DNA from: Prosthecobacter sp.
GTDB taxonomy: Bacteria > Verrucomicrobiota > Verrucomicrobiia > Verrucomicrobiales > Verrucomicrobiaceae
DNA length: 64,000 bases
Direction: 5' to 3'
Assembly: GCA_021733925.1 (NCBI GenBank)
Contig: JAIPJY010000012.1
Span: forward strand, 79,036 to 143,035
Made by a program: the position numbers and the translations under genes. The notes under the pieces are model-generated. The model ran no database searches. It saw nothing but the letters and a program-made list of their open reading frames with translations, and was not told where the DNA came from. Shown one piece after another: positions 38,298-53,112 of this stretch (the stretch's first letter is position 1; each line of letters starts with the position of its first letter).

Positions 38298-41200
38298 TCA
38301 ATGATTAAACAAGAACGCCGGTGAGTTGATCAAGGCCCACGCCAGATCCTGCGCCGCCGTAAGCCGCTTGTTGCCAAGCTGGCTCTGACTCAGACCCGCA
38401 TCTCGACGGAGCTGGACCAGTTTAGGATCAAGCGAGATCGGCTTCTGCGTATCGGTGTGCTTGGTTTCCAACGCCACGAGCTGCTCATCCACCGGCAGCG
38501 GCTTGCGGGCGTTCGCGAGAACCTTCTTCTGCGACTGGTAGTCCTTGAACTGGTTCAGGAAGTGCTGGGTCAGCAGCGCCTTCTGCTCAGGCTTGCGATT
38601 GGCGGCAGGAACCTTCAGCGCGGCGGCGACAGCAGCAGGAGTGCCAAAACGGACGGCGGGGCTGGTGGTGACCCACAGGCGGAAACGTCCGGCGTTGTAT
38701 TTGCCATTCTGGAAATTGGAGGTCATCACGATGGTGAACTGCGAACCGCCGTCATTTGCCACAGGCTTGGCGAATTCAAAGGTGGCCTCATGGCGGAATC
38801 CACCCTGCGGGCTCACAGCCCAGCCGCGGTCACGATTGCCTTTCTTGAGAGCTTCGGTCACGACAAAGTTGGTCTGCTCAAAGTCGGCCTTCGGATTCTT
38901 CAGCAACTGCTCTTCACCACCGCGCTTGCTGCGCTTGGCGTCCATGGGGTCCGTGCGGACTGTGAATTCGCCGAGCACAAAGTTGCCATCTGGGGCGAGG
39001 CCAGGACCGTTGCTTGGCAGGCGGTCGTCGGGGATCATCTCCAGCTTGATGGCCGTGATGTTCGTGAGCGACGTTTTACCAATGAGCATGTAGTTGCCGG
39101 CAGTTTCTCGGCCTGCGGGCAGCGCCGTGGCAAAGAGACTGCCATCCGGCTGCACTTCGAGTTTCTCCACGCCCGCGGCACGCTGCACCTTGATGTTGTC
39201 AAACGGCTGCCATTCCGTGGTGAGATCGAGATAATTTTCCCACGCAGGCTGATTCGCAGCGGCGGTGTCCTGCACGGTCTTCACCTTGGCTTCAGCGGCG
39301 ATGGTGGCGGCCTTGCGTGCGGCTTCCTTCTTGGCGATCTCTGGAGCCATCTTGGCCTTGTAAGCTTCGAGTTCCTTCTTCGCAGCGTCGATGGCAGCCA
39401 GACGCTCCTGCTCAGCTTTATCGATCAACGGCTTCTGTTCGGCCTCCTTGACCTGAAGTGTGGCGGCGAGCTGTTTGTTCTCAGGATCAAGCTCCTGCAT
39501 GGAAGCCAGCGCAGCGTCGATTTCCTTCTCGTTCGCATGGCTGTTAAGGATGCGGAGGAAGATGGCATCGACGAGCTGGCGGTCGTCTTTGATTTCGCTG
39601 GTCAGTTTGGCTATGGCGTTGCCGGGATCGCTGATGGCATCGCCCACAGTCGGGCCGCTCATCAGCGCCATGACGGGACCGAGGTTGACCTCGTTGCTAC
39701 GTTCGCACTCGCACACGGATTCACGGGCGGGTTTGCCGAAGTTGGCGAGGAAGCCGTCCTGCAATTTGACCTGACCATCAGCCAAAGCAGCGGCGCGTGT
39801 GCCCTTCGGCATGCCCGGAATGTTCGGCATGCTGCCAGTGACGGCAAAGACGGAGTCAAACAGCACTTCAGCAGGCAGGCGGCGTGCCTTGGCGTGGCTG
39901 TAGTTGGTCTTGTCGTCCTCGTTCCATTTGTTGGTGCCAAGGCTCAGATTGTACGTGCGGCTGTTGGCGATGATCTTCATCAGGTGGCGCACGTTGAAAC
40001 CGCTTTGAACAAACTCGTTCGTCAGGTACTGCAGCAGTTCAGGATTGCTCGGCGGATTGCCGGCGCGGATGTCATCCAGCGGTTCGATGACTCCGGTGCC
40101 GGTGAGGTAGCCCCAGATTCGGTTGGCATAGCTCATGGCAAAGTAATCATTCTGCGGGCTGGTCAACCAGGTGGCGAACTGCTCACGACGTGTGTTCGCC
40201 GTTTTGCTGACGAGTTCGGTTTCAAACGGCACCTGAGGCGAGACGGGCTTGTTGGTGCGCAGATGCAGCACGTCGCCGTCTTTTTTGTCGGAGACGATTT
40301 CGAACAGCGGCTTCGCTCCTTCGACGGCGGTCCCGCCGATAGTCTTGCCCTGGGCGGCAGGATCGCCCTTGAGATCCACCTGCGCGAAGTAGGACGCGGT
40401 TTCATAGTACTGGTCCATCGTCCAGCGCTCGAAGGGATGGTCGTGGCACTTGTTGCAGTTGAAACGGGTCGCGAGGAAAAGATGCGTGGTGTTTTCGCTG
40501 ATTTCTTCAGCAGTGCGCACGGTCTTGAAATACGCGGCGGGCGGATTGTCCTTGTTCGAACCCGTGGCGGTGATGATGCGATACGCAAAGCGGTCATACG
40601 GCGTGTTGTCGCTCACCTGCTGCTTGATCCACGTGCGCAGACCACCGGCACCTTCGGCACCGAGGAATTTGGAGTTCACCTGCAGCATGTCGGCCCACTT
40701 GTTCGCCCAATGCTCGACGAAATCCGGATTGCCGATGAGCTTGTCCACCACCTCGCTGCGCTTGGTGCGTGTGTCACGCTTGTCAGCCATGAAGGCGATG
40801 ACTTCTTCGGGCTTCGGTGGCAGGCCGGTGAGATCGAGATGGATGCGGCGCAGGAAGTCCTCGTCCTTGCACAGGCCGCTCGGCTCGATCTTCATGCGCT
40901 CCCACTTCTGCGCGACGAGTTCGTCGATCTTGTTCCACTTCTCCGGCTCTTTCCAGGCAAAGCCAGAGCGGTCGCCCATCACGGTGATGGTGGTGGCGGC
41001 GTAGGAACCTTCAAAGCGCGCGAGGATCGGCGCCTCTCCACGGCGCAGGCTGGTCATGAGGCCCTTCTTGTCGGCTTCAATGACATCGCCATTGCCGCTG
41101 TCGAGGAAGGCCTCGGCGGTGACGTCTTTGACATAGCCGTCGGCATAACGCGCGATGACCCGGAGCTGCTGGCGGCCACCGATGCGCTCGATGACGGGAT

Positions 41201-43403
41201 TTTTCGGCGACAGTTCGATGCTGGTGACGCGTGGCGTCTTCATGTCCAGCTTCGCACCCTGGCCGATCCAGGCCTTCAGAGACTCGTAGTAAAGCTCTCC
41301 CGGCACGGTGAGCTGCCCGCCTTCATGCGGCACACTGCCGCTGGCTTTCAAAAGCATGAGCGAATGCTCCGGCGACGCCACGTTAGCACGGCGGCTGGAG
41401 AGGTCATCAGCAAACGCGAGCACATCATAAACAGGATCATAACCCCGCAGCGAAAGCTTGAAGCCCGCCTTGCCTTCCTTCGCACCGTGGCAGGTGCCGG
41501 CATTGCAACCAAGCTTCGACATGATCGGCATCACATCGCGCACATAGTCGGGGTGGAGGGCTGCGTTCATGCCGCTCACGTTCACCGGAACATTCGCGGT
41601 CTTGCCGAGGAATGAGATCTTCACGCTGGTGGCACCATCCTTGTCCGGGCGCACCATGCCACGGGCGTTCACGGCCACGACATCGGTGTTTGCCGCAGTG
41701 ATCTTGGCCATGCGAGTGACGTCGGCACGCGTACCGTCGCTCATGCGTGCAGTGACGAGAAGCTGGGCGTATTCGGTGGGCTTGCCGATCTTAATCGTGG
41801 TCGGTTCGACATCGATGGAGGCGACCGTCGGGCCGTTGTGAAGGGTCTCGACCTTGGCGTCCTTCTCGACCACGGCACGCACGCTGTCGTCCACGAGCAC
41901 ATCCGAGGCTGCGAGGATCTTTTCCTTCTCCAGCGGCACCGAGACAAACTCCTTGGCGATGGCTCCGTTGGCCGCATCGATGAGACGGATCTGGCCGTCC
42001 TGCCCTGCCACGGCGACGGTTTTGCCATCGGGGCTGAAGGTGACGCTGAAGATGCCGCAGGGGATCGCCGTGCTGCTGAGTTGTTTCACGCCTTTGACGA
42101 CCCAGTCATCCAGATCCTTGCCTTTGCCGCTCACTGTTTCGACGATCTTCTTCACCGCCTCAGGCATCGTGCTGTCGTAATCGCTGGCGTAAATGTTCAC
42201 CGTCCCTGTTCCTTCAAACGAGGTGCCGGCCGCGATGCGCTTGCCATCCGGCGCGAAATCGACGCCGAAGATGCGGCCCTGCATGGCGGGGAATTTGCGG
42301 ATGAGGTTGGCGTTGTCGCCGATGACCCGCTTCGTGATGCGCTCCATGCGGTAGATCGCAGGCACACCGTCGGTGCCGCCGATGAGCACTTCATTGCGCA
42401 GCGGATGCCGCGCCAGCACCTGCACCCCGCCTTTGAGTGCACCCGGTGTGATGGAGGTCACGTTATCCACGAAGCGCTGCGTCGAGACCTCCGTGAGCTT
42501 CACGCTCATGTCACGACCGCAGGAGACGACATGCTTGCCATCCACGCCCCAGACGGTGTCCAGCACCCAGTCGCTGTGCCCGCCCATGAAGAGCGTTTCC
42601 TTGCCCGTGGCGACTTCAATGGCACGCACCGCATTGTCACCGCAGCCGAACGCGAGGAATTTGCCATCGGGTGACCAGCTCGCACCATACAGCGTGTCAA
42701 AAGTCAGCGATTTGGAGAGTTCCAGCTTCTTCGCCGCCACGTCCCAAATTTGAATTTCACCCATGCGCGCCGGGCTGCCGCCAGTAAGCGCGATCTTCTT
42801 CCCATCCGGCGACCAGGCAAGCTTCTGAATGCGTTCCGCCAGACCCACGAGACGAGCGACGATGCCGCTACCATCCGCCTTGTGGATCAAAACTTCATGA
42901 TAGCCCGCCACCGCGATCATGCTGCCATCCGGCGAATACTCAATCGAGGTGATGGCCGGCGCCTTCACATAAACGGGTGGATGGGCCATGTCGTACTGCG
43001 CCTTGGCAGACGCTGGCGTGTCATCCTTCGCACCTTCAGCGATCCAGCGTTCGATCAGGGCAATTTGAGTTTCATGCAGCGGGTCGGCCTTCTGCGGCAT
43101 CTCCACCTTGCCCTTTTCGTCCGGCTTGATCAGCTTCAGCAGATTGGATTCCACCGCCTTGCCCGGCACCACCGCATGGCCTTCCTCGCCCCCTTTGAGC
43201 AGCGCCGCGAACTCCGTCATGATGTAGTCACCCTTTTTCTTCGCCGGCTGGTGGCAGCCATTGCACTGCGCCTGGAAGATCGGACGGATGTGCTTGTAGA
43301 AGGAGACCGGCTTGTTCGGGTCAATGCCCTCCTCCTTCTTCGGCGGTGCGGCATGCACGGCGGCGGCGAGGAAGAGTACAGGAATGAGGAGACGTGTCTT
43401 CAT
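38298..43403 (-). CDS. Giant secreted protein: cytochrome c, WD40, Ig-like, DUF1549 and DUF1553
   Basis: 1701 aa with signal peptide (MKTRLLIPVLFLAAAVHAA). Order: heme-binding CNGCH (47-51) in a Planctomycete-type cytochrome; a WD40-like propeller (IEYSPDGSMIAVAG, KLAWSPDGKKIALTG, FSPDGKTVAVAGQDG); a bacterial Ig-like domain; a second Cys motif CNAGTCHG; a second Ig-like domain; DUF1549 (RRIHLDLTGLPPKPEEV); DUF1553 (RIWGYLTGTGVIEPLDDIRA), with an Ala/Lys-rich coiled coil (LAAIDAAKKELEAYKAK) inserted; and a C-terminal discoidin-like beta region. Such proteins are abundant in Planctomycetes and Verrucomicrobia, their job is unknown, and electron transfer in polysaccharide attack is a common guess. 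It is divergent from jetA with 164 bases between starts. Confidence 0.85.
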   Translation of the reverse strand: MKTRLLIPVLFLAAAVHAAPPKKEEGIDPNKPVSFYKHIRPIFQAQCNGCHQPAKKKGDYIMTEFAALLKGGEEGHAVVPGKAVESNLLKLIKPDEKGKVEMPQKADPLHETQIALIERWIAEGAKDDTPASAKAQYDMAHPPVYVKAPAITSIEYSPDGSMIAVAGYHEVLIHKADGSGIVARLVGLAERIQKLAWSPDGKKIALTGGSPARMGEIQIWDVAAKKLELSKSLTFDTLYGASWSPDGKFLAFGCGDNAVRAIEVATGKETLFMGGHSDWVLDTVWGVDGKHVVSCGRDMSVKLTEVSTQRFVDNVTSITPGALKGGVQVLARHPLRNEVLIGGTDGVPAIYRMERITKRVIGDNANLIRKFPAMQGRIFGVDFAPDGKRIAAGTSFEGTGTVNIYASDYDSTMPEAVKKIVETVSGKGKDLDDWVVKGVKQLSSTAIPCGIFSVTFSPDGKTVAVAGQDGQIRLIDAANGAIAKEFVSVPLEKEKILAASDVLVDDSVRAVVEKDAKVETLHNGPTVASIDVEPTTIKIGKPTEYAQLLVTARMSDGTRADVTRMAKITAANTDVVAVNARGMVRPDKDGATSVKISFLGKTANVPVNVSGMNAALHPDYVRDVMPIMSKLGCNAGTCHGAKEGKAGFKLSLRGYDPVYDVLAFADDLSSRRANVASPEHSLMLLKASGSVPHEGGQLTVPGELYYESLKAWIGQGAKLDMKTPRVTSIELSPKNPVIERIGGRQQLRVIARYADGYVKDVTAEAFLDSGNGDVIEADKKGLMTSLRRGEAPILARFEGSYAATTITVMGDRSGFAWKEPEKWNKIDELVAQKWERMKIEPSGLCKDEDFLRRIHLDLTGLPPKPEEVIAFMADKRDTRTKRSEVVDKLIGNPDFVEHWANKWADMLQVNSKFLGAEGAGGLRTWIKQQVSDNTPYDRFAYRIITATGSNKDNPPAAYFKTVRTAEEISENTTHLFLATRFNCNKCHDHPFERWTMDQYYETASYFAQVDLKGDPAAQGKTIGGTAVEGAKPLFEIVSDKKDGDVLHLRTNKPVSPQVPFETELVSKTANTRREQFATWLTSPQNDYFAMSYANRIWGYLTGTGVIEPLDDIRAGNPPSNPELLQYLTNEFVQSGFNVRHLMKIIANSRTYNLSLGTNKWNEDDKTNYSHAKARRLPAEVLFDSVFAVTGSMPNIPGMPKGTRAAALADGQVKLQDGFLANFGKPARESVCECERSNEVNLGPVMALMSGPTVGDAISDPGNAIAKLTSEIKDDRQLVDAIFLRILNSHANEKEIDAALASMQELDPENKQLAATLQVKEAEQKPLIDKAEQERLAAIDAAKKELEAYKAKMAPEIAKKEAARKAATIAAEAKVKTVQDTAAANQPAWENYLDLTTEWQPFDNIKVQRAAGVEKLEVQPDGSLFATALPAGRETAGNYMLIGKTSLTNITAIKLEMIPDDRLPSNGPGLAPDGNFVLGEFTVRTDPMDAKRSKRGGEEQLLKNPKADFEQTNFVVTEALKKGNRDRGWAVSPQGGFRHEATFEFAKPVANDGGSQFTIVMTSNFQNGKYNAGRFRLWVTTSPAVRFGTPAAVAAALKVPAANRKPEQKALLTQHFLNQFKDYQSQKKVLANARKPLPVDEQLVALETKHTDTQKPISLDPKLVQLRRDAGLSQSQLGNKRLTAAQDLAWALINSPAFLFNH

Positions 43404-43567: not shown

Positions 43568-45046
43568 ATGCTTCCCGAATCCCTCAGCACCCGACTCAGC
43601 CGCAGTGTGTCGGCAGATTTTTTCCGCCCCCTCGCACGGCCTTCCGCGCCGGTGTACGTGGACTGCGCGGACCGTCTGGTCGAGGAAGCCGGTGAAGCCG
43701 GCAGGCTATCCCAGCGCGAAACCAACGAGATCATTCGCGAAGTCATCGCCCGCCATCCACTCTCCCTGCTGGCTGACGACGAGGGCGCGGCTTTACGGGA
43801 TGCACGGCAGCGTGCAGGCCAGTTTTTCAACCGCCTCATCGCCGCTGGCTGGCTGGAAGATCAGACCCTCGGCCTGCATGAGCGCTGGGCCGTCATCACC
43901 CCCGGCCTGCGCCCCCTCCTGCGCATGCTACGTGACCTCGCCGAGGATCGCGTCGCCGAACTCAAAACCTTCGCCGACACCCTGCGCGGCCTCTGCCAGA
44001 CCCTGGAGGAGCGCGGCGTGCTCGACCCCGTGCTCAAGCAACCGGATCAACTCCGCTCCACCGTCACCGATCTTTCCCAGCGCCTCGAACGCGCCATCGA
44101 GCAGCTTCATGCCGTCGAAAAAATCGTCACCAGCTTCGAGCAGCGCCAGCGGCAGAGCGCCACCGCCGCCGACACCCTGAGCCTCCTCTATGAGGAATTC
44201 GGCCAGGGCCAGCACATGGTCTGCTACGATGCCCTGCGCCGTGGCGGCCTGCTCATGCGCATCGAACAAGCCCGCAGCACCATCGCAGAGCGCCAGGACG
44301 ATCCGCTCATGCGCGAACGCCTCTCCGAAGGCCTGCGCGAGCACTACGGCTACGACTCCACCGAGTCCTACGACCTCGCCGTCTCCCTCCTCACCCGCCT
44401 CGACCGCGATCTCGGCGGCCTGAAACGCCGTGCCGAAGCCATCGACCTGCGCATGGCCGCCTTCAACCGCCTCAGCCAGCAGCGCTACCGTTACCAGACC
44501 GAACTGCGCGGCCGCCGTCCGGAGATCATCAAAGCCTACTGCGATTCCATCAACACCGCCCACGCCGGCGGTCGCTTCTCCGAACTCGGCGCCAAGCCCG
44601 CCGACTTCGCACCCCGCTGTGTCGAGACCCGCTTCTTCTTCGGCACCGAATCCCTCTACAAACCCCGCCGCACCAAAGCCCCCGTCGACCTCACCTTCGG
44701 CCAAAGCGGTGCCGTCAAACAAAGCGAAGACGACGTCCTCGCCGCCTGGAAAGAGCGCCAACGCCTCGCCCTCACCCCACAGCGCGCTGCCCGCCTCGTC
44801 GCCAGGCTCATCCCCGCCAAAAAAGGCACCGCCACCACCGAAGACATCCACCTCGAAACCACCGACGACCTCCTCGATCTCCTCGCCGTCGTGGCCTACG
44901 AACACGCCCCCGCCCTCGCCGGCAAACGCATCCGCTGGAGCGTGGACGGTCTCCGCCGCCGCAACGGCCTGGAACCTCACATCATTGAGCACGACACTCA
45001 TGCCGGCCATCGCATTGAGAGGTTTTCAGTTCAGCGGGAGAGCTGA
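43568..45046 (+). CDS. jetA: Wadjet system subunit JetA
   Basis: 492 aa from ATG 43568 (MLPESLSTRLSRS); an earlier frame extension of 58 codons has shadow-like composition and was rejected. The sequence has a winged-helix-type N-terminus (ETNEIIREVIARHP, FFNRLIAAGWLEDQ) then long helices (VTDLSQRLERAIEQLHAVEKI) as in the kleisin-like JetA/MukF-type subunits. JetA joins the heads of the JetC dimer in the loop-extruding complex that finds and cuts plasmid DNA. Assignment rests on this fold and on the downstream JetB, JetC and JetD; subtype I/II/III is not decided by eye. The next Wadjet gene is 2 kb away. Confidence 0.82.
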   Translation: MLPESLSTRLSRSVSADFFRPLARPSAPVYVDCADRLVEEAGEAGRLSQRETNEIIREVIARHPLSLLADDEGAALRDARQRAGQFFNRLIAAGWLEDQTLGLHERWAVITPGLRPLLRMLRDLAEDRVAELKTFADTLRGLCQTLEERGVLDPVLKQPDQLRSTVTDLSQRLERAIEQLHAVEKIVTSFEQRQRQSATAADTLSLLYEEFGQGQHMVCYDALRRGGLLMRIEQARSTIAERQDDPLMRERLSEGLREHYGYDSTESYDLAVSLLTRLDRDLGGLKRRAEAIDLRMAAFNRLSQQRYRYQTELRGRRPEIIKAYCDSINTAHAGGRFSELGAKPADFAPRCVETRFFFGTESLYKPRRTKAPVDLTFGQSGAVKQSEDDVLAAWKERQRLALTPQRAARLVARLIPAKKGTATTEDIHLETTDDLLDLLAVVAYEHAPALAGKRIRWSVDGLRRRNGLEPHIIEHDTHAGHRIERFSVQRES

Positions 45047-45066
45047 GGCAAGACCCTAACTTTAAA

Positions 45067-45336
45067 ATGGCAAATCTGACGCCATCAACTCCAGACCTCC
45101 AGCGAGCAATCCGTAGGGAGAAAGTGCTACGTGCGCGATCCATGAGCGAAGAAGAGCGCCTTGTAGCCGCACTGGACCAAATCGAACTCGCGTTTGCGTG
45201 GATGATGGAAGGAGTGAGACAAGAATCCCCAAGCATTACGAATGAGCAGGCCCGCCAAATCCTCGCCGAACGACTGGACCGCCAGCGCCGCCGGGAAAAT
45301 CACGGTCTTTTTGTTCCTGCCATCACAAGCGCTTGA
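45067..45336 (+). CDS. Small hypothetical protein inside the Wadjet locus
   Basis: 89 aa, 20 bases after jetA. A helical, charged protein (IRREKVLRARSMSEEERLVAAL, QARQILAERLDRQRRRENHG). TAACTT lies 4 bases before its ATG. It resembles the short helical genes that precede nucleotidyltransferase or other toxin-like genes in Planctomycetes and Verrucomicrobia, but its usual partner is absent. It may be a leftover of an inserted two-gene cassette, or an accessory of Wadjet. No function is assigned. Confidence 0.5.
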   Translation: MANLTPSTPDLQRAIRREKVLRARSMSEEERLVAALDQIELAFAWMMEGVRQESPSITNEQARQILAERLDRQRRRENHGLFVPAITSA

Positions 45337-45632
45337 TGAAAAGCTTCTGATCTCGCGGCATAATTCAGCTATTATTGAGACTTGCATCACAGACTCACAT
45401 CCTTGTCTTGAAGGCCAACGGCCTTCCGTAATATAGCCCAGGGGTGCCGAGCTTTAGCGAGTGCTCCCCTGGGTTCGGGTAGCCAATCCGGGAAGCAAAC
45501 CCAGCGCCTCTCCACACGACGCCGGGCACCAGCAGCGTCTGCTCCGACATTGCGCCGCAGGGGGCTGTGTCTTGCGTCCTGTGTCCCGCGCGGTCCAAGT
45601 CCTCCGGCTCCAGATTTCACACTCCCTTGACG
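45337..45632. repeat. Non-coding REP-like element between jetA and jetB
   Basis: No convincing gene here. Hairpin AAGGCC-AAC-GGCCTT lies at 45411-45425, and an imperfect palindrome beginning CCCAGGGG (45437-45444) and ending CCCCTGGG (45466-45473) follows, with loop core GAGCTTTAGCGAG. Downstream are GC-rich stretches with short open frames on the minus strand whose peptides look like translated repeat DNA (PGVVWRGAGF type). This is typical of intergenic repeat families in this phylum; the exact family cannot be named without a genome-wide search. Confidence 0.5.
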
Positions 45633-46934
45633 TCACTCTATTGCGCAAGCGTCAATAAGTGTGCTTACACGAAAGCCCGTCTGCGTGATCTCAATGAACT
45701 CTTTGGAATCCGGATGGTAACGCCAAGGCTTGACCTGCGGGTCCGTCAGCAAACAATCACCGGACTTGATGTCCCACACCGTCGTGCCGTCATTATCATG
45801 TACGGCAAACAGATACTGGTCGAAAAAGAACGACTCCGTCAGCCTGCGCGGCGGCCATGCGCCGGACATCCGCACCTTGGGGCCTGGGAACCATTGCAAT
45901 TGCTTCCCGTCACGAACATCAATCAAGACCGCTGCAGGCACCATCCATTCTTCATCCCCCCAGCCCCAAGAAGCCAGCGTAAAGTTGTTGATCCAACACA
46001 CAGGTTCGTCCCAAGCTTCTCGGCATGCCAAATCACGGTACGTTGGGCCGTCTTCTGATTCCCACTCATTATTCAACCACGCCGGCAGATTCCATGCTCG
46101 TAGAAATCCCATGGGATGCCAAACCCAGCCATTATCGACGACAAATTGCTGATCGGGCGAGACGCACAGACCGCCATGGAAGTAATCGAGGTAGTGAGGC
46201 GGCCTCTCTTTGTTCACATAGCAAGTGGGCCCGCGTTCGCTAAGCACCTTCCCTGTCGCAGGATCATAAAGATCCAGCCGGTTCCAATCACTGGCTGCGA
46301 TCAAATAGGTTCGATCTTCATTCCGGAAAAAAGCGACCGGAAAGTGACTGTTTTCACAATGGTAGTCACCTCGTGAAAGCTTGCTGATGATCTTGCCAGT
46401 CTTCACATTGACCAATGCGGCATTGGGACCTGAAGCTTGGGATACGACAGCAAACTCATTGTCTGGCGAGATGCAGAAACCCGTTTCACCCGTGATCTCG
46501 AAACCCAGATCTTCCAGCGGCACCGAGGCGAGGATTTTGGTCTCCTGCGTTGAAAATAAAACCAGTCTGCCAGTAGTGGACAAGGCCTGCCAGCAAGTCG
46601 GCCTGCCCAGAACTGGACGAATATCCACAAAAGAGATAGGGGCATCTTCGAGCTCCAAATCGCGAGCGGAAAAGCTTAAACCACTTTGCCTATGTTTGAT
46701 CTCCGGACTTCCGCAGATGCCTCTCCAGTAAATTGTGTCCCGATTCTTAGCCAGCCACTCCTTCGTGGCTGGCAACCAGGGCTCCGGGGCAGAGGGGTAG
46801 CTCTTGGCGCAGTCCTCGCACGTCCAGTTCAAATCCTTTCCGTAGCCCGTGAACCACGCAAATCTATATCTATATCCATTTGGTGCTTCCTCCGCCAAAT
46901 GTCGGCAAATGAATTGCGGATCGTCACTGTACAT
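45633..46934 (-). CDS. Beta-propeller hypothetical protein, antisense to the Wadjet genes
   Basis: 433 aa from ATG 46934 (MYSDDPQFICRH); an ATG at 46994 would add 20 residues. Repeating units such as LVLFSTQETKILASV, GFCISPDNEFAVVSQ, ALVNVKTGKIISKL, YLIAASDWNRLDLYDPATGKV, and GGLCVSPDQQFVVDNG form a WD40/YVTN-like propeller. There is no signal peptide. The base composition is lower in GC than jetA and jetB and the gene points the opposite way, between them. Such propellers are found as repeated orphan genes in Verrucomicrobia. Link to Wadjet is not shown. Confidence 0.6.
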   Translation of the reverse strand: MYSDDPQFICRHLAEEAPNGYRYRFAWFTGYGKDLNWTCEDCAKSYPSAPEPWLPATKEWLAKNRDTIYWRGICGSPEIKHRQSGLSFSARDLELEDAPISFVDIRPVLGRPTCWQALSTTGRLVLFSTQETKILASVPLEDLGFEITGETGFCISPDNEFAVVSQASGPNAALVNVKTGKIISKLSRGDYHCENSHFPVAFFRNEDRTYLIAASDWNRLDLYDPATGKVLSERGPTCYVNKERPPHYLDYFHGGLCVSPDQQFVVDNGWVWHPMGFLRAWNLPAWLNNEWESEDGPTYRDLACREAWDEPVCWINNFTLASWGWGDEEWMVPAAVLIDVRDGKQLQWFPGPKVRMSGAWPPRRLTESFFFDQYLFAVHDNDGTTVWDIKSGDCLLTDPQVKPWRYHPDSKEFIEITQTGFRVSTLIDACAIE

Positions 46935-47056
46935 CGTCAGAATTAAAGCGGCTGCCCGGCTGCGCCCCAAGGATAAAATGCTCTCGTGGAACAATAGCGA
47001 ATTATCGCGAGCCCAAGGTTGAAGCGCGAAAGGCTCTCTTCATCGTCCACTCCCCC

Positions 47057-47710
47057 ATGTCCGCCTCCACCTCCGATCCTCTCTGGCCGCGCTCCTTTTG
47101 GAGTGACGTACCGGATGCTGACCGCGCCGCGCTGCGCGAGGTGCTGGCGGAACTGCTCGGCCGTGGCGTGCTACTCGGCGATGAAGGCAGCGGACGCGAA
47201 CTCTACATGCTGGCTCGCGATCACTACCGCACCCACGTGGAGGACTACCTCGCACCTCTCGCGCTGGAACTGATCGTCGATGACGAAAATTCGCTGCTGC
47301 AGGCCAGACCGCGCACGGAATCCTGCCTGCTGCTCGCTCGTTTTGATAAGGACGAGACCCTCGTGCTCCTCGCACTGTGGCGTCTGTACGATGATGAAAT
47401 CAGCACCGGCAGCCAGGAGGCCGTCATCGTCACCGTGGATCAGCTCTGGGCCGCGCTGAAAGTCTATTTCGACAAAGTCGCCACGCCGGAAAAATCTCAG
47501 ATCGAGTCCTGCCTCGTGCGTCTGCGCCGGCATCGCCTCGTGCGCACGCTCAAACCCGAAGGCATGACGCAGGCCGGAGAAATGCAGATCGAAATCCTGC
47601 CCAGTCTCTCGCGTGTGATCCCCTTTGATGACATCGCCGCATGGCAGGCACGCGTAGAAACATTTCAGCCGCCCAAAGACGACAGTGACGTTGAGGAGGT
47701 GCCCGCATGA
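47057..47710 (+). CDS. jetB: Wadjet system subunit JetB (DUF4194)
   Basis: 217 aa. LREVLAELLGRGVLLGDEGSG, YLAPLALELIVDDENSLLQAR, ESCLLLARFDKDETLVLLALW, and the winged-helix-like C-terminus (VRLRRHRLVRTL) match DUF4194/JetB, the MukE-like subunit. It bridges JetA and JetC. The GTG/ATG architecture is standard, and its stop overlaps jetC by 4 bases (ATGA). The 122 bases upstream separate it from the reverse-oriented propeller gene and must hold its own promoter, since jetA's operon is blocked. Confidence 0.85.
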   Translation: MSASTSDPLWPRSFWSDVPDADRAALREVLAELLGRGVLLGDEGSGRELYMLARDHYRTHVEDYLAPLALELIVDDENSLLQARPRTESCLLLARFDKDETLVLLALWRLYDDEISTGSQEAVIVTVDQLWAALKVYFDKVATPEKSQIESCLVRLRRHRLVRTLKPEGMTQAGEMQIEILPSLSRVIPFDDIAAWQARVETFQPPKDDSDVEEVPA

Positions 47711-50700
47711 GCCAGTCGCGCATCACCTTGAGCCGCATTCTCGCCGTCAACTGGTACGGCTATCGTCAGATCATCGATGTTTCCGGCCTGTCGCTGATCA
47801 CCGGCGCCAACGGCAGCGGCAAAAGCGCCCTGCTCGACCTCATTCAGTTCGTCATGCTGGGCGAGCAACAGAGCAAGTTCAACAAAGCCGCTGCAGGTGC
47901 GGGCAGCGGTCGCAGCCTGCGTGGCTACTGCCTCTGCGACACCAACACCACAGGCCGCGACGGCCACGAGCGCTACCTGCGCCCCAGCAGCGTCACACTC
48001 GCTGCACTCGAGTTCACCTGGCCCACGCAGCCCGGCGAAGAGGAGCCACGCCGTGAGACCTGGGGCGCACGCATCGAGTACGAAAGCCCCACGGCCAAGC
48101 CTTCGACCATCTGGTTCTGCGCCGGTCGCCGCTTAGCGTGGCAGGACTTCCTCAACAGCGAAGCCGGACCGCAGGCCATGCAATTCCTCCCCGAGGACGA
48201 GTTCCGCACCCGCGTGAAGCGCGAGCTCGACGGCGACGTGTGGGACCGCCAAAAAGCCTACCTCGATGAGATGGCCATGCGCAGCCACCTCGGCTTCGAT
48301 CCCGAGCAAATGGGCAAGACCCTCCCTCGCGCCATGGCCTTCGAACCGGAGAGCAACTTCGAAAAATTCGTGCGCGAATTCCTCCTCGAACCCGGCATGC
48401 CCGACGTGAAGGCCGTGAAAGCCAGCGTCGATGCCCACCGCCGCGCGCAGGAGCGGCTGGAGAAAATGCATGACCAGCTAGAGCGCCTGAAACGCATCTC
48501 CACGCATCATCAGGACTGGATCAACTCAAAGCGCGAATCCGCCCTCTACACCCACCTCAGCGATGCCTTGAAGCACGAGGAAGCGCTTGAAAATCTCCAG
48601 CGCAGCCGCGCCGAGCTGGACGAAAAACAGGCGGACTACGAGGACAATCGCAAAACCCACGAGCAAACCCTCGAAGAGCGTGACCGCCTGCGCCGCTCGG
48701 TGGAAGCAGCCCGTGCAGCTCTGGGCGACAAAGCCGTGCGCATGGAGGAAAACGACCGCCGCCGCCGCGAGTTGTCCAAGGAGATCAGCCGCCTTGAAGC
48801 CGCCGCCACAAGCCTGCATGACCAGATCCGCTCCCACCTGCGCCACTGGCAGGACTGGACACTGCACGCCGCTCGTCTGGGCCTGCAAGACACCGCCGAT
48901 GCCTCCGCCGCCATCTCCGGCATGCAGAGCAAAGACGAGAGCAAGTCTCTCGCCGCCGCGCGTGAATCCTCCCATGCCTTCATCAAACTACGGGACGAAG
49001 CCATGGAACAGCTGCGCCCCGTCGAAGCTCGCCTGAATGATCACGAGATGCGCAAGTCCGCGCTGCACAAAGACCTCACTCAGCTCCGCGAAGGCCAGGC
49101 CTCCCCTTCTCCTCTGCTGAACGCTCTGCTCTCCCGCGGTCAGAAAGCCGTCGCATTGGGCCGTGTCGTGGAAGTGAAGCCCACGGCGGAAAAATGGTGG
49201 CCCCTCCTGGAGACCGTGCTCGGCATGAACCGCCGTGCCGTCATTCCCGAAGACTTCCGCGCCGCGTGGGATCAGGCTCAGCAGACACCGAGCCCGAACG
49301 AACTGCTCATCCATCCCGAGGAAGCCGCCAAAACCACCGCGAAAATCGAAAAAGGCTCCCTGCGCGAAATGCTGGAGACCCAGCATGAAGTGGCGGGCAA
49401 AGTGCTCGATCACCTGCTCGGCGGCATCGTCGCCGTAAACAAAGCCTCGCAGCTCGACAAGCACGAACGCGCCCTGTCACTCGACGGCTGGTTCAAAGAC
49501 CCGCCGCGTCGCCTGCGCCTCACGCCCGAAAAAGAACTCACCCTCGGCGAGGAAGGCCTGCGCCGTCTCCGCGATGTGCGTGAAAACGAACTTCGCGAAA
49601 CCGATGCCGTCATCGAAGAAGTGCGCCAGGATCGCGATGATCTCCGCGCCTTCGTCAATCGCGGCATGGAGTGGCGTCTCGACCGCTTCAATGTACCAGA
49701 AGGCGCAGACGAAGTGCCTCTGCTGCCCAAGCTGCGCAGAGAACTCGGTGAACTCCAGGCCACCTGGGATCTGCTCGCCACACCGGACAACGTAAAGGCA
49801 ATGGAAAACCTCCGCGTGGAAAACGCCTCGCTGGAAGGCATTCACGAGCGCATCGGCAGTCTCAAAGCCGCCATCACCGCCTTCGAACTCGCCAAGACCC
49901 GGCTCGAAGAATCCATCAGCAAAGACATCTTCCAGGAGGAGCAGACCCGCATCGCCCGCCAGGCCTCGCGAACACTCGTGCGAGGCACGTCGGACGATGA
50001 CATCACAGCGCGTATCAACGCCGAGCGGCAGAAATCGACCTCCTGGCGCAAATCCATCGAGATGGCCGCCACACTCGCCGTCCAGCTCGACACCCATGCG
50101 CTGGAGGCCCGCCGCCTGCGCGATGAGCATCGCCGCGAACTCGTCACCGTTCACGCTGATCTCAGCGATGCCCTCGATGCGGACGCCGAGGACAACGACG
50201 CCTACGACAAGCGCCGCGAAGATCTCGAAACCCACGAATTGGAGCGCTACAAGTCCGCCGCCCTCGAAGCCAAGCGCGAGTGGGAAGACCGCCTGCAGCA
50301 TCAAGTTCTCGATGTGCTCCGCGAAAAACTCAGCGAAGCCGACCGCACCAAGCGCGAGCTGAACCGCGCCATGGATCACGAGATCGGCGGCTGGCGCTAC
50401 CAGCTCACCAGCCGCGCCGACAAAGCCCACACCGCCATCTGGACGCTCGTCGAAAAAGGCCTGCCTAGTGGTTCCGAGATGGAGCTCTTCAACGCCGCCG
50501 GTCGCGAAGACATCGAGCGTGCCAAGAACGAGCTCATGGCCGCCATCGACGCCGCCGACAATCCTGAAGACAAGCGCCACCAGCGAGCCCTGGACTACCG
50601 CTACTACCATCACTGGGACATCGAAGCCAAGCCCGCAGGTCGCGGCGATGCCGCTGCCATCAGCTTGAACAAAAGCGCCAAGAAACAAAGTGGTGGCGAA

Positions 50701-51045
50701 AACCAGGCCCCCTTCTTTGTCGCCACCCTCGCCGCCTTCCGTCGCGTCTATGATCTCGGCCGCCGCGACGACCCGCAAAACCTCGGCCTCGTCGTCATGG
50801 ACGAAGCCTTCAGCAAGCTCAGCGGCGACCGCATTGACGACTGCCTCGCCATGGCCCGAAACTTCGGCCTGCAGCTCATCATGGCCTTCCCCGAAGACCG
50901 CCTGCCCACCATGTTCCAGCACGCCGACACCGTCGTGCAATGCCGCGTCGAACGCACCTACGATGAAACCAGCGAGCAGATTCAAAACATCGAAAACTGG
51001 GTCGTTCGCGTCGAAGGCTCACGCCTTGCAGAACTGATGGAATGA
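47707..51045 (+). CDS. jetC: Wadjet system SMC-like ATPase JetC
   Basis: 1112 aa. Walker A GANGSGKS is at residues 33-40; two long coiled coils flank a hinge region around 430-560 (ALGRVVEVKPTAEKWWPLLETVLG); the ABC signature SGGE is at 995-998; Walker B LVVMDE ends in Asp1032/Glu1033. This is the MukB/SMC-like motor of Wadjet. In studied systems it extrudes DNA loops and, with JetD, cleaves small circular plasmids. All ATPase residues are present, so the gene looks functional. Its stop overlaps jetD by 4 bases. Confidence 0.92.
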   Translation: MSQSRITLSRILAVNWYGYRQIIDVSGLSLITGANGSGKSALLDLIQFVMLGEQQSKFNKAAAGAGSGRSLRGYCLCDTNTTGRDGHERYLRPSSVTLAALEFTWPTQPGEEEPRRETWGARIEYESPTAKPSTIWFCAGRRLAWQDFLNSEAGPQAMQFLPEDEFRTRVKRELDGDVWDRQKAYLDEMAMRSHLGFDPEQMGKTLPRAMAFEPESNFEKFVREFLLEPGMPDVKAVKASVDAHRRAQERLEKMHDQLERLKRISTHHQDWINSKRESALYTHLSDALKHEEALENLQRSRAELDEKQADYEDNRKTHEQTLEERDRLRRSVEAARAALGDKAVRMEENDRRRRELSKEISRLEAAATSLHDQIRSHLRHWQDWTLHAARLGLQDTADASAAISGMQSKDESKSLAAARESSHAFIKLRDEAMEQLRPVEARLNDHEMRKSALHKDLTQLREGQASPSPLLNALLSRGQKAVALGRVVEVKPTAEKWWPLLETVLGMNRRAVIPEDFRAAWDQAQQTPSPNELLIHPEEAAKTTAKIEKGSLREMLETQHEVAGKVLDHLLGGIVAVNKASQLDKHERALSLDGWFKDPPRRLRLTPEKELTLGEEGLRRLRDVRENELRETDAVIEEVRQDRDDLRAFVNRGMEWRLDRFNVPEGADEVPLLPKLRRELGELQATWDLLATPDNVKAMENLRVENASLEGIHERIGSLKAAITAFELAKTRLEESISKDIFQEEQTRIARQASRTLVRGTSDDDITARINAERQKSTSWRKSIEMAATLAVQLDTHALEARRLRDEHRRELVTVHADLSDALDADAEDNDAYDKRREDLETHELERYKSAALEAKREWEDRLQHQVLDVLREKLSEADRTKRELNRAMDHEIGGWRYQLTSRADKAHTAIWTLVEKGLPSGSEMELFNAAGREDIERAKNELMAAIDAADNPEDKRHQRALDYRYYHHWDIEAKPAGRGDAAAISLNKSAKKQSGGENQAPFFVATLAAFRRVYDLGRRDDPQNLGLVVMDEAFSKLSGDRIDDCLAMARNFGLQLIMAFPEDRLPTMFQHADTVVQCRVERTYDETSEQIQNIENWVVRVEGSRLAELME

Positions 51046-52244
51046 AATGGCTGGCCCAACTGCACCAAGACTGGATGGCCGCCCGGAAACGGCGGGTGAC
51101 GTCCGCAGTGCAGCCCTTTCGTCGTGATTGGGAGCAGCTTCTGGAAGACGCCGGCATTCGTTCAGCAGAAGACCAGCAGACCGCTCTTCGTGAGGCCCAG
51201 CAGCTTGCCAAATTTCAACTCATCCCTCGCAAGCGAAACCCACGCTTCATCGACAAGATCATCGTGCCATTGGAGTCAGAAGCCTGGCTGCACGAACAGT
51301 TCGGCACCCAACCCGGCGCAGCGGCACAGCAGCAGGCTCTTGAAGTCGTGCAGACGTGGTCACTGAAAACACATCCCCTCATACCGGAAACTTGGACCCA
51401 ACTTTGCCACCACTTAAAAACTGCATTCAGCATTCCACGAGTGCTCGAACCCTTCCGCTGGCTGGAGCCAATCCGTGTGAATGAACTGCTGACCCTGCTC
51501 TTCCAAATCACCAGCCGCGAATGGCCCACCGGCACGCTGATTCGCGATGCAAGCACGCATCTCGGCTACGACTCCAAACATCTCGAATCCCAGCAAAGCT
51601 TCCTCGAACGCGCCCTGGAAGCGCTCTTCGGTCGTGAGACACCGCTGGAGGCTGTCGGCATTCAGACGAGCAACAGCACACTCCATTACTGCGGTCCGCT
51701 GGTGCTGCATTTCGAAGATCACGCAAAGCCGCTCGACCTCCGCTTCGAATCTACTCTGTCCGTCGCAGAGCTGGAGCACGCCACTCACATCACCACCACC
51801 GCCCAGCGCCTCCTCACCGTCGAGAATCGCAAAACCACCTTCCTGCAGCTCGCACATGCGGATGCGCAGCGCAGCACCTTGATCGTCGCCACCTCCTTCC
51901 CCACGCAGGCGGTGAAGCTCCTGCTGCAAAAGCTGCCACCTGCTCTTCCCCACTACCATTTCGGCGACACCGACCCCAGCGGCTGGGACATCCTGCGCAG
52001 ACTGCGCGAGATTTCCCCTGCCCCCGTGCAGCCCATTCACATGGCATGGCGGCCCGCCGCTCAATCAACACCACTGACCCAGCGCGGCACCCAGATCATC
52101 GACCGACTTCTGGCAGATCCCCGCATGGCAGACTGCCACGCACCTCTGCAGGCCATGCGAAACTCCGGCACGAAAGGTGACTTCGAACAGGAATCGCTCG
52201 GCCGGCCCACTTTGCCGGAGTGGCCGTTTTATGAGTTCGCATGA
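51042..52244 (+). CDS. jetD: Wadjet system Toprim nuclease JetD
   Basis: 400 aa. The N-terminal half is a DUF3322-type arm and winged helix; the C-terminal half is a Toprim domain: the Glu in TVENRKT (E261) and D-x-D in FGDTDPSGWD (D309, D311), the metal ligands of the Toprim active site. JetD cuts the plasmid after the SMC motor has trapped it. Residues needed for cleavage are all seen. It follows jetC with a 4-base overlap, which closes the jetBCD operon. Confidence 0.9.
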   Translation: MKWLAQLHQDWMAARKRRVTSAVQPFRRDWEQLLEDAGIRSAEDQQTALREAQQLAKFQLIPRKRNPRFIDKIIVPLESEAWLHEQFGTQPGAAAQQQALEVVQTWSLKTHPLIPETWTQLCHHLKTAFSIPRVLEPFRWLEPIRVNELLTLLFQITSREWPTGTLIRDASTHLGYDSKHLESQQSFLERALEALFGRETPLEAVGIQTSNSTLHYCGPLVLHFEDHAKPLDLRFESTLSVAELEHATHITTTAQRLLTVENRKTTFLQLAHADAQRSTLIVATSFPTQAVKLLLQKLPPALPHYHFGDTDPSGWDILRRLREISPAPVQPIHMAWRPAAQSTPLTQRGTQIIDRLLADPRMADCHAPLQAMRNSGTKGDFEQESLGRPTLPEWPFYEFA

Positions 52245-52293: not shown

Positions 52294-53112
52294 ATGGCCT
52301 CCCCCACCGACCGCGCGCACACCATCGCTGTTTTCTGCGACTTCGAAAACCTCGCCATCGGCGTGAAGGACGCGCAGTATGACAAGTTCGACATGAACAA
52401 GGTGCTGGACCGGCTGCTGCTGAAGGGCAGCATCGTGGTGAAAAAAGCCTACTGCGACTGGGATCACTACAAGAGCTTCAAAGCCGGCATCCATCAGGCC
52501 TCCTTTGAACTGATCGAGATCCCGCACGTGCGGCAGTCCGGCAAGAACTCAGCAGACATCCGCATGGTCGTGGACGCACTTGATCTCTGCTACACGAAGC
52601 CGCATGTGGACACCTTCGCCATCGTCAGCGGCGATTCCGATTTCTCGCCTCTGGTCAGCAAGCTGCGTGAAAACAACAAGACCGTCATCGGCGTGGGGGT
52701 GAAGCAGTCCACCAGCGGCCTGTTCATCGACAACTGCGACGAATTCATCTTCTACGACGACCTCGTGCGCGAAGAAGAAAAAACCAAGAAGCGCATCGCA
52801 CGTGCCAAGCCCGCTCCCTCCACAGCCAAACCAACCGCCACTCAGGAACGCAAACCCGGCGGCGATCCCGAGAAGGCGATCCAGCTCGTGGTCGAGACCG
52901 TCGAGGCCATGCTCGGTCGCAGCGGCAGCGACACCGTCTGGGCCGGCCCGGTCAAGCAGGCCATCCGCCGCCGCCAGCCTCAGTTCGACGAACGCTTCTA
53001 CGGCTTCAGCACCTTCAGCGCCCTGCTGGAGGCAGCCGCAGATCGCAATCTCATGAAGCTGGAGCGCAACGAAAACGGCTACCGGATCAAAGTGTCGTCT
53101 TCCGAAGAGTAG
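52294..53112 (+). CDS. NYN-domain nuclease-like protein with OST-HTH/LOTUS domain
   Basis: 272 aa. The NYN (PIN-like) domain has the metal-binding Asp pattern: VFCDFENLAIG at the start, NSADIRMVVDALDL, and FAIVSGDSDFSPLVSKL. A linker rich in Lys/Pro (RAKPAPSTAKPTATQ) leads to an OST-HTH-type winged helix (AMLGRSGSDTVWAGPVKQAIRRR, FYGFSTFSALLEAAADRNLMKL). This is the LabA-like architecture thought to act on RNA. It is only 49 bases after jetD on the same strand, with a small stem (ACTGG/CCAGT at 52244-52257) between. It may extend the Wadjet operon or be an ordinary neighbour. Confidence 0.82.
   Translation: MASPTDRAHTIAVFCDFENLAIGVKDAQYDKFDMNKVLDRLLLKGSIVVKKAYCDWDHYKSFKAGIHQASFELIEIPHVRQSGKNSADIRMVVDALDLCYTKPHVDTFAIVSGDSDFSPLVSKLRENNKTVIGVGVKQSTSGLFIDNCDEFIFYDDLVREEEKTKKRIARAKPAPSTAKPTATQERKPGGDPEKAIQLVVETVEAMLGRSGSDTVWAGPVKQAIRRRQPQFDERFYGFSTFSALLEAAADRNLMKLERNENGYRIKVSSSEE

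What the first reader, a model, noticed from the sequence alone, without database searches (positions are those of the whole stretch)
43568..52244. Complete Wadjet plasmid-defence system, split into jetA and jetBCD
JetA, JetB (DUF4194), JetC (SMC-like with Walker A at 33-40, SGGE at 995-998, Walker B at 1032-1033) and JetD (Toprim E261, D309, D311) are all present and look active. jetBCD overlap by 4 bases at both joints, but jetA is 2 kb away, whereas Wadjet genes are normally packed together. Two promoters would be needed to make one complex.
Basis: partly seen in the sequence, partly recalled or inferred. Interest (0 to 1): 0.7.

Follow-up and report, generated by a model that had tools for sequence, protein, structure and literature searches.

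The report
Anti-plasmid operon with swappable insert slot
A complete bacterial anti-plasmid defence operon (Wadjet) is interrupted between its first two genes; in related bacteria the same gap is either closed or filled with toxin-antitoxin or other defence genes, and here it holds the left-over antidote gene of such a pair.

Summary
Confirmed: jetA, jetB, jetC and jetD are intact, form a type I Wadjet, and jetA lies 2 kb from jetBCD. The split is unusual: in 43 of 44 class-level genomes with both genes on one contig the jetA-jetB gap is 14-144 bp; only the window's genome has 2 kb. In the window's Wadjet clade it is empty in 10 of 21 readable loci and filled in 11: seven carry a MenA1/Rv0078B-like antitoxin plus a MenT-like nucleotidyltransferase, one a HEC-01-like defence pair, two small unknown ORFs, and the window an orphan antitoxin whose toxin and promoter are gone, replaced by 1.7 kb with a dispersed repeat and an antisense gene. 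Toxin tree and synonymous divergence show that cassettes have a history of their own. Best reading: an ordinary, probably working type I Wadjet with a decayed state of a recombination-prone toxin-antitoxin slot. The slot was found only in this lineage; whether the cassette guards, stabilises or merely rides on Wadjet is untested.

The parts
43568..45046 (+). jetA, kleisin-like subunit (PF18982), 492 aa
45067..45336 (+). orphan MenA1/Rv0078B-like antitoxin gene (89 aa), left from a toxin-antitoxin cassette; promoter-like motif of the cassette missing
   Evidence: (PF18993 E 0.001, 19.5 bits, below cut-off 27.1)
45345..47040 (.). replacement segment: no homology found to the cassette of G001/G002, which has its toxin gene here (limits approximate)
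   Evidence: homology to the G002 cassette ends at about 45344 and resumes at about 47041
45368..45628 (.). dispersed repeat, at least 44 matches in the own genome including this copy (core about 45404-45559)
   Evidence: 40 of 128 candidates scored, so a lower bound
45633..46994 (-). 453-aa ORF (433 aa from an ATG at 46934), no family match, antisense to the Wadjet genes; relatives in 2 of 95 other genomes
47057..47710 (+). jetB, DUF4194, 217 aa
47707..51045 (+). jetC, SMC-like ATPase, 1112 aa, ATPase motifs intact
51042..52244 (+). jetD, Toprim nuclease, 400 aa, E261/D309/D311 intact
38298..43403 (-). left chromosomal flank: 1701-aa PSCyt1/WD40/DUF1549/DUF1553 protein
52294..53112 (+). right chromosomal flank: NYN-domain/OST-HTH protein

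Best explanation
The four genes are a complete type I Wadjet. From the literature (shown elsewhere, inferred here), JetABC is a loop-extruding sensor and JetD cuts small circular plasmids. The jetA-jetB junction in this Verrucomicrobiaceae clade is an insertion slot. Cassettes, mostly a MenA1-like antitoxin plus a MenT-like nucleotidyltransferase toxin with a promoter-like motif of their own, enter, leave and are exchanged there, most likely by homologous recombination through the flanking jetA and jetB sequences. The window shows a decayed state: the antitoxin is left, its promoter-like motif and the toxin are lost, and a repeat plus an antisense gene stand in the toxin's place. Wadjet itself should still work if jetBCD has a promoter or is reached by read-through. 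In relatives with an intact cassette, the pair most likely stabilises the locus (losing or replacing it would free the toxin). Shown: gene content, slot, independent cassette history, conserved motif, loss in the window. Inferred: recombination as the route, Wadjet activity, promoter and toxin activity, stabilising role.
For: Wadjet identity. Split unusual. Slot empty in 10 and filled in 11 of 21 readable loci of the clade. Cassette identity: antitoxin PF18993 above cut-off in 4 of 6 copies scanned (G057, G039; G001, G042); toxin DUF6036 above cut-off in 4 of 6 scanned (G057; G039, G042, G017); predicted toxin fold has MenT1 of the MenAT1 complex as best PDB match (8an5_A, E 3.6e-07, TM 0.63). 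Independent movement: identities, toxin tree, p-AU 0.0018 against the JetC-like grouping, dS 0.74-1.62 in the cassette against 0.26-0.44 in the jet genes among G000/G001/G002. Recombination: modest identity dip beside the junction in the empty G029. Loss in the window.
Against: No activity is shown for any part. The window's antitoxin is below Pfam's cut-off (19.5 against 27.1) and that of G002 gave no match; the toxins of G001 and G002 fall just under the DUF6036 cut-off, and PADLOC has at best a weak AbiEii match (E 0.008, G002) and none for the G057 pair. The antibiotic-modifying enzyme ANT(2'')-Ia matches the toxin model almost as well as MenT1. The window antitoxin keeps dN/dS 0.11-0.14, so it may not be a mere relic. 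The identity dip is modest (81-86% against 86-97% elsewhere in the same pair). In the class sample only 2 of 27 toxin-family genes are near Wadjet, so the link is local. Common ancestry with many losses plus allele exchange is not fully separable from repeated insertion.
Confidence: 0.72

Rival explanations
1. Guard model: the MenAT1-like cassette is functionally coupled to Wadjet, as PrrC is to type I restriction (recalled). If a plasmid or phage blocks or removes Wadjet, the toxin is released and stops translation.
For: The 11-row toxin clade holds 9 Wadjet-linked rows, the 16 rows outside it none (Fisher p 1.2e-5, ignoring relatedness). Two positions relative to Wadjet (in the jetA-jetB gap, or just upstream of jetA) carry toxins of that clade. 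PrrC embedded in type I restriction loci is a precedent of embedding (PMC12629846, passages).
Against: 10 of 21 readable Wadjets of the clade have no insert. Unrelated cargo fills the same slot. The Wadjet-linked toxins are not an exclusive clade: two unlinked copies sit among them, and holding the nine linked rows together is rejected (p-AU 0.006). The window keeps an intact Wadjet without the toxin. No contact or sensor is known.
Confidence: 0.15
2. Neutral hitchhiking: the junction merely tolerates insertions, and the cassette does nothing for Wadjet.
For: Heterogeneous contents: HEC-01-like pair in G031, unknown ORFs in G028 and G024, antisense gene in the window. A VapBC-like pair lies antisense between jetB and jetC in G062.
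Against: One toxin clade recurs at Wadjet loci far more than random placement in genomes of several Mb would give. Insertions over 400 bp at this junction were seen in 11 of 21 loci of one clade and 0 of 29 co-directional loci outside it.
Confidence: 0.25
3. Assembly artefact: jetA and jetBCD were joined wrongly at the dispersed repeat in a fragmented assembly.
For: A repeat with at least 44 matches in the genome lies in the gap; the assembly has 127 contigs.
Against: Both sides of the gap have the expected neighbours of one locus (left flank gene-jetA, jetD-NYN gene), as in contiguous relatives. None of the 44 repeat matches lies at the right junction. An artefact could hide extra sequence at the repeat but would hardly create the split.
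Confidence: 0.04

Closest known systems
Wadjet type I (JetABCD / EptABCD)
   Same: Four subunits, domain make-up, motifs; the JetC profile matches solved JetC 8as8 over profile positions 4-1082 at E 7.9e-27 (that 8as8 is a type I JetC is recalled, in line with the type I structures named in PMC10586767, passages)
   Different: jetA separated by 2 kb with foreign genes between; 43 of 44 class-level loci are packed within 144 bp
MenAT1 (MenA1 Rv0078B / MenT1 Rv0078A) nucleotidyltransferase toxin-antitoxin of Mycobacterium tuberculosis
   Same: Small antitoxin upstream of a nucleotidyltransferase; PF18993 antitoxin family; fold of the toxin; invariant T37, D39, D41 (G002 numbering), the T-x-D spacing matching MenT1 T39/D41 named in PMC10435456 and PMC11375011 (passages)
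   Different: Toxin sequence match to MenT1 is weak (8an4, E 0.45; 16-18% identity in the fold search); embedded in or beside Wadjet; in the window only the antitoxin remains
Defence systems embedded in other defence systems (Hma-embedded candidates; PrrC in type I restriction)
   Same: A second defence or toxin-antitoxin module sits inside a multigene defence operon; the G031 slot holds HEC-01A/B-like genes
   Different: Host operon here is Wadjet and the main guest a MenAT1-like pair; Payne et al. 2024 (bioRxiv 10.1101/2024.01.29.577857) is known to me only as a citation in other papers (not held), so I cannot say whether it covers Wadjet
MukBEF / MksBEF condensins
   Same: SMC, kleisin and small-subunit make-up; JetB has a weak MksE match below cut-off
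   Different: JetD nuclease present; JetB and JetC score far better as Wadjet proteins

Membership tests
Wadjet type I | All four subunits JetA, JetB, JetC, JetD | tested here: met
   best PADLOC model of each protein is the type I one (JetA1, JetB1, JetC1, JetD1)
Wadjet type I | JetC with intact Walker A, signature motif and Walker B | tested here: met
   invariant in 21 of 21 aligned JetC
Wadjet type I | JetD Toprim acidic residues | tested here: met
   (16 of 16 aligned JetD)
Wadjet type I | Gene order jetA-jetB-jetC-jetD on one strand | tested here: met
Wadjet type I | Compact cluster (usual, not known to be required) | tested here: not met
   2010-bp gap in the window against 14-144 bp in 43 of 44 class-level loci. 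I treat compactness as usual rather than defining and file this as a structural variant of type I Wadjet
Wadjet type I | Restriction of small circular plasmids | not testable with these tools
   needs an experiment
MenAT1-like toxin-antitoxin (cassette in relatives) | Rv0078B-family antitoxin upstream of the toxin gene | tested here: met
   above cut-off in G057, G039, G001, G042; no match listed for G002
MenAT1-like toxin-antitoxin (cassette in relatives) | Nucleotidyltransferase of MenT fold with catalytic acids | tested here: met
   D39, D41, E91 invariant in 8 of 8; 8an5_A first, E 3.6e-07; ANT(2'')-Ia scores nearly as well (9.8e-07), so the fold alone does not settle it
MenAT1-like toxin-antitoxin (cassette in relatives) | Toxicity and neutralisation | not testable with these tools
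   needs expression in a laboratory strain
MenAT1-like toxin-antitoxin (window itself) | Both antitoxin and toxin present | tested here: not met
   Toxin absent from the gap; the three nucleotidyltransferase matches elsewhere in the genome are 26-31% identical; one antitoxin copy in the genome. The window holds an orphan antitoxin, not a pair

The most novel reading that the evidence does not exclude
A MenAT1-like subfamily has become a nearly dedicated mobile companion of Wadjet in this lineage. It moves between Wadjet loci, enters the operon between the subunit gene jetA and the motor/nuclease genes jetBCD, and couples survival of the cell to possession of an intact Wadjet. The window shows a strain that escaped by keeping only the antidote.
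Probability: 0.2. Interest if true: 0.75.

Novelty: new variant of a known kind. Interest (0 to 1): 0.47.

Why it matters
It turns an odd gene spacing into a testable case of one immune module lodged inside another. Here a Wadjet operon is repeatedly opened at one joint by toxin-antitoxin and defence genes, with empty, filled and decayed states in close relatives. That gives natural material to ask whether embedded toxin-antitoxin pairs guard, stabilise or just ride on defence operons. My literature searches (listings, open-licence papers only) showed no report of a MenAT-type pair inside Wadjet; that is weak evidence of absence, and the preprint most likely to hold one was not available.

Tried and rejected
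Other Wadjet types rejected: JetC2 and JetD2/D3 models score far below type I. Single-sequence searches of the PDB gave nothing for JetD (E up to 10), JetC (0.01) or JetA (1); profiles were needed. The antitoxin profile gave no MenA1 and only matches that I take for chance in the PDB (best a designed-looking TPR-like chain, E 7e-4), and the toxin profile only weak matches, MenT1 among them at E 0.45, so the MenAT1 link rests on Pfam and the fold search. A class-wide test of the toxin-Wadjet link was mostly negative: 27 matches at E up to 1e-25 in 23 of 384 genomes, 2 near Wadjet. No slot of this kind was found outside the clade: in 29 co-directional loci the gap is at most 209 bp. The antisense 453-aa protein stayed without a family. 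The toxin tree used the 30 best loci (weaker matches left out), minus 3 rows dropped for length (G045 76 aa, G035 108 aa, G091 32 aa). One second, weak jetB match (G043 contig 400, E 6e-4) was not followed. No shuffle control was run for the TTGGCA motif, and the groups tested were named after seeing the tree.
Full report
What was checked. The window carries jetA (43568-45046), jetB (47057-47710), jetC (47707-51045) and jetD (51042-52244), all on the + strand. Each protein finds its type I Wadjet model first in PADLOC, and the Pfam matches to JetA, DUF4194, SbcC_Walker_B and JetD_C are above their cut-offs. A profile of 21 JetC matches the solved JetC 8as8 over almost its whole length (E 7.9e-27) and the solved JetC 9qe0 only in part (E 5.7e-06). 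The JetD residues E261, D309 and D311 are invariant in 16 of 16 JetD and fall on the Toprim acids of topoisomerase VI A. The window's genome has one JetC match at E up to 0.001.

How unusual the split is. In an even sample of 384 genomes of the class, 45 have jetB and 47 a jetA match. In 44 both lie on one contig; 43 gaps are 14-144 bp between match edges, and only the window's genome has 2043 bp (G320 is excluded, its two genes being on different contigs, and G241 and G247 have a jetA fragment only).

The gap is a slot. Of 96 related genomes (the window's included) 52 have jetB, and I fetched the surroundings of the best match in each (the window itself for G000). In the JetC tree (50 of 52; G030 was too short and G080 has no jetC next to its jetB) the window falls in a 22-row clade. 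The junction can be read in 21 of these (the G011 contig ends inside jetB). It is empty (36-74 bp) in 10: G005, G006, G007, G014, G015, G022, G025, G029, G044, G056. It is filled in 11: a two-gene cassette in G001, G002, G009, G019, G037, G039, G057; an AAA ATPase plus DUF4276-like pair in G031, which PADLOC matches to HEC-01A/HEC-01B (E 7.8e-92 and 5.2e-27); single small ORFs without a Pfam family in G024 and G028; and the window. Outside the clade 29 co-directional loci have at most 209 bp there, and G080 has jetA inverted. A further named relative, L121, also has an empty junction of 41 bp.

What the cassette is. Its first gene encodes about 90 aa (89-94 where I read the full ORF) and belongs to the Rv0078B-related antitoxins (PF18993: 31.9 bits in G057, 28.4 in G039, 27.9 in G001, 36.0 in G042, cut-off 27.1; the window copy 19.5, below; G002 no match). 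Its second gene encodes a nucleotidyltransferase of about 184 aa. DUF6036 is above cut-off in G057, G039, G042 and G017 and just below in G001 and G002. PADLOC knows the pair at best as a weak AbiEii match. T37, D39, D41 and E91 (G002 numbering) are invariant in 8 of 8. A predicted structure of the G057-type toxin (mean pLDDT 84.3, alignment of 6) has MenT1 in the MenAT1 complex as its best PDB match (8an5_A, E 3.6e-07, TM 0.63, 16% identity), followed closely by the antibiotic-modifying enzyme ANT(2'')-Ia. Rv0078B is MenA1, and MenT1 adds CMP to tRNA acceptor stems (PMC10435456, passages). Toxicity here is inferred, not shown.

The cassette has its own history. The toxins of G019 and G057 are 88% identical while their JetC are 71%; those of G001 and G057 are 47% while their JetC are 85%; that of G057 is 71% identical to the one upstream of jetA in G042 although the JetC are 47%. 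The toxin tree (27 rows of the 30 best loci) has an 11-row clade with 9 Wadjet-linked rows and 2 others (G041 contig 8, G043 contig 722), and 16 rows outside with none. Holding the toxins of G001, G002, G057 and G009 together, as their JetC would ask, is rejected (p-AU 0.0018); so is holding all seven gap cassettes together (0.015), and all nine Wadjet-linked rows together (0.006) (groups named after the tree was seen). The last result means that the Wadjet-linked toxins are not an exclusive group. Among G000, G001 and G002 the synonymous divergence is 0.74-1.62 in the antitoxin (near saturation at the top) and 0.76 in the toxin (G001-G002) but 0.26-0.44 in jetA, jetB and jetC. Beside the junction the empty G029 is 81-86% identical to G001 in the last two 150-bp windows of jetA and the first two of jetB, against 86-97% in the other windows; G001 and G002, both with cassette, are 88-95% identical in the same four windows. 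This modest dip fits exchange of the slot by recombination through the flanking genes.

A second position. In another clade of seven Wadjets (G017, G018, G033, G034, G041, G042, G045) the same kind of cassette lies just upstream of jetA: intact in G017 and G042, with only the end of the toxin matched in G045, only an antitoxin fragment in G018. All 7 gap cassettes and the 3 upstream ones with a full antitoxin carry TTGGCA, 16 nt, TAnnnT before the antitoxin; of 18 copies elsewhere 6 fit the looser TTGnCA, 15-18 nt pattern, one of them the G041 contig 8 copy (no shuffle control). So the cassette seems to bring its own promoter.

The window as a decayed state. The window keeps the antitoxin ORF but has only 23 bp before it instead of 64, without the promoter-like motif. 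Homology to the G002 cassette ends at about 45344 and resumes at about 47041; between them the toxin gene is missing and 1.7 kb of other sequence stands instead. That sequence contains a repeat with at least 44 matches in the genome and a 453-aa antisense ORF with relatives in 2 of the other 95 genomes. No near copy of the toxin was found elsewhere in the genome (three matches, 26-31% identity) and no second antitoxin; the assembly is 93% complete. The antitoxin's dN/dS of 0.11-0.14 argues against long neutral decay: either the loss is recent or the antidote is still useful.

Results against a general rule. In the class sample 27 toxin-family matches (E up to 1e-25) were found in 23 of 384 genomes, and only those of G042 contig 6 and G017 contig 2 lie next to Wadjet, although eight other genomes with such toxins also have a Wadjet elsewhere (G041, G209, G263, G278, G279, G301, G379, G454). 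The association is real but local to this lineage.

The chromosomal site. The Wadjet lies between a 1701-aa PSCyt/WD40 protein gene and an NYN gene. The same place holds a second, distant type I Wadjet (JetA 27-29%, JetB 31-34% identical) in G012, G020, G027, G030 and G047 (in G020 and G030 the two flanks are on different contigs), no Wadjet in G004, G016 and G032 (flank genes 145-173 bp apart), and two other genes in G008. Several members of the window's clade (e.g. G005, G009, G015, G057) lack these flanks in the stretches fetched, so their Wadjets appear to lie elsewhere. There are thus two nested levels of exchange: whole Wadjets at one chromosomal site, and cassettes at one joint within the operon.

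Verdict. A real, probably working type I Wadjet whose split is explained by a clade-specific insertion slot. Embedding of defence modules in other defence operons is known in kind (PMC12629846 and PMC12988326, passages); Wadjet as host and a MenAT1-like pair as main guest is, as far as my searches of open-licence papers show, a new variant.

Noticed in passing
L075, L076, L079, L081, L082 (G012, G030, G027, G047, G020): A second, distant type I Wadjet (JetA 27-29%, JetB 31-34% identical) sits at the same chromosomal site (same PSCyt/WD40 and NYN flanks) in five genomes of the genus: whole-system replacement at one locus.
   Followed up: partly
L087 (G016), L088 (G004), L090 (G032), L086 (G008): The same site without Wadjet: flank genes 145-173 bp apart in three genomes, two other ORFs (337 and 999 aa) in G008. 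Short matches there to the over-extended start of a jetA query I take for flank sequence, not a jetA remnant.
   Followed up: partly
L080 (G062), jetB-jetC gap of 915 bp: A VapB-like antitoxin and a PIN-domain gene lie antisense between jetB and jetC: another toxin-antitoxin pair inside a Wadjet, at a different joint.
   Followed up: partly
L039 / L129 (G031), jetA-jetB gap of 2307 bp: A HEC-01A/B-like ATPase + DUF4276-like pair fills the jetA-jetB slot; the record of L129 is titled Akkermansia muciniphila, which does not fit its neighbours in the JetC tree (perhaps mis-binned or mislabelled).
   Followed up: partly
L121: Contig titled Bosea sp. 12-68-7 carries a Wadjet 97-98% identical to the window: probably a mis-binned contig.
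   Followed up: no
L038 / L128 (G025): jetC is interrupted after residue 806 and only a C-terminal piece of jetD matches: a Wadjet apparently in decay.
   Followed up: no
L054 (G080): jetA lies on the opposite strand, 95 bp from jetB, and no jetC was found in the stretch fetched.
   Followed up: no
window 45368-45628: Dispersed repeat with at least 44 matches in the genome (core about 45404-45559); nature unknown.
   Followed up: partly
L062 (G042), upstream of the cassette: A DUF4238 protein (PADLOC DUF4238-Pers, E 3e-15) beside the MenAT1-like cassette upstream of jetA.
   Followed up: partly
window 45633-46994 (-): 453-aa protein without any family match; one 33% identical relative in G074 and a partial one in G027.
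   Followed up: partly
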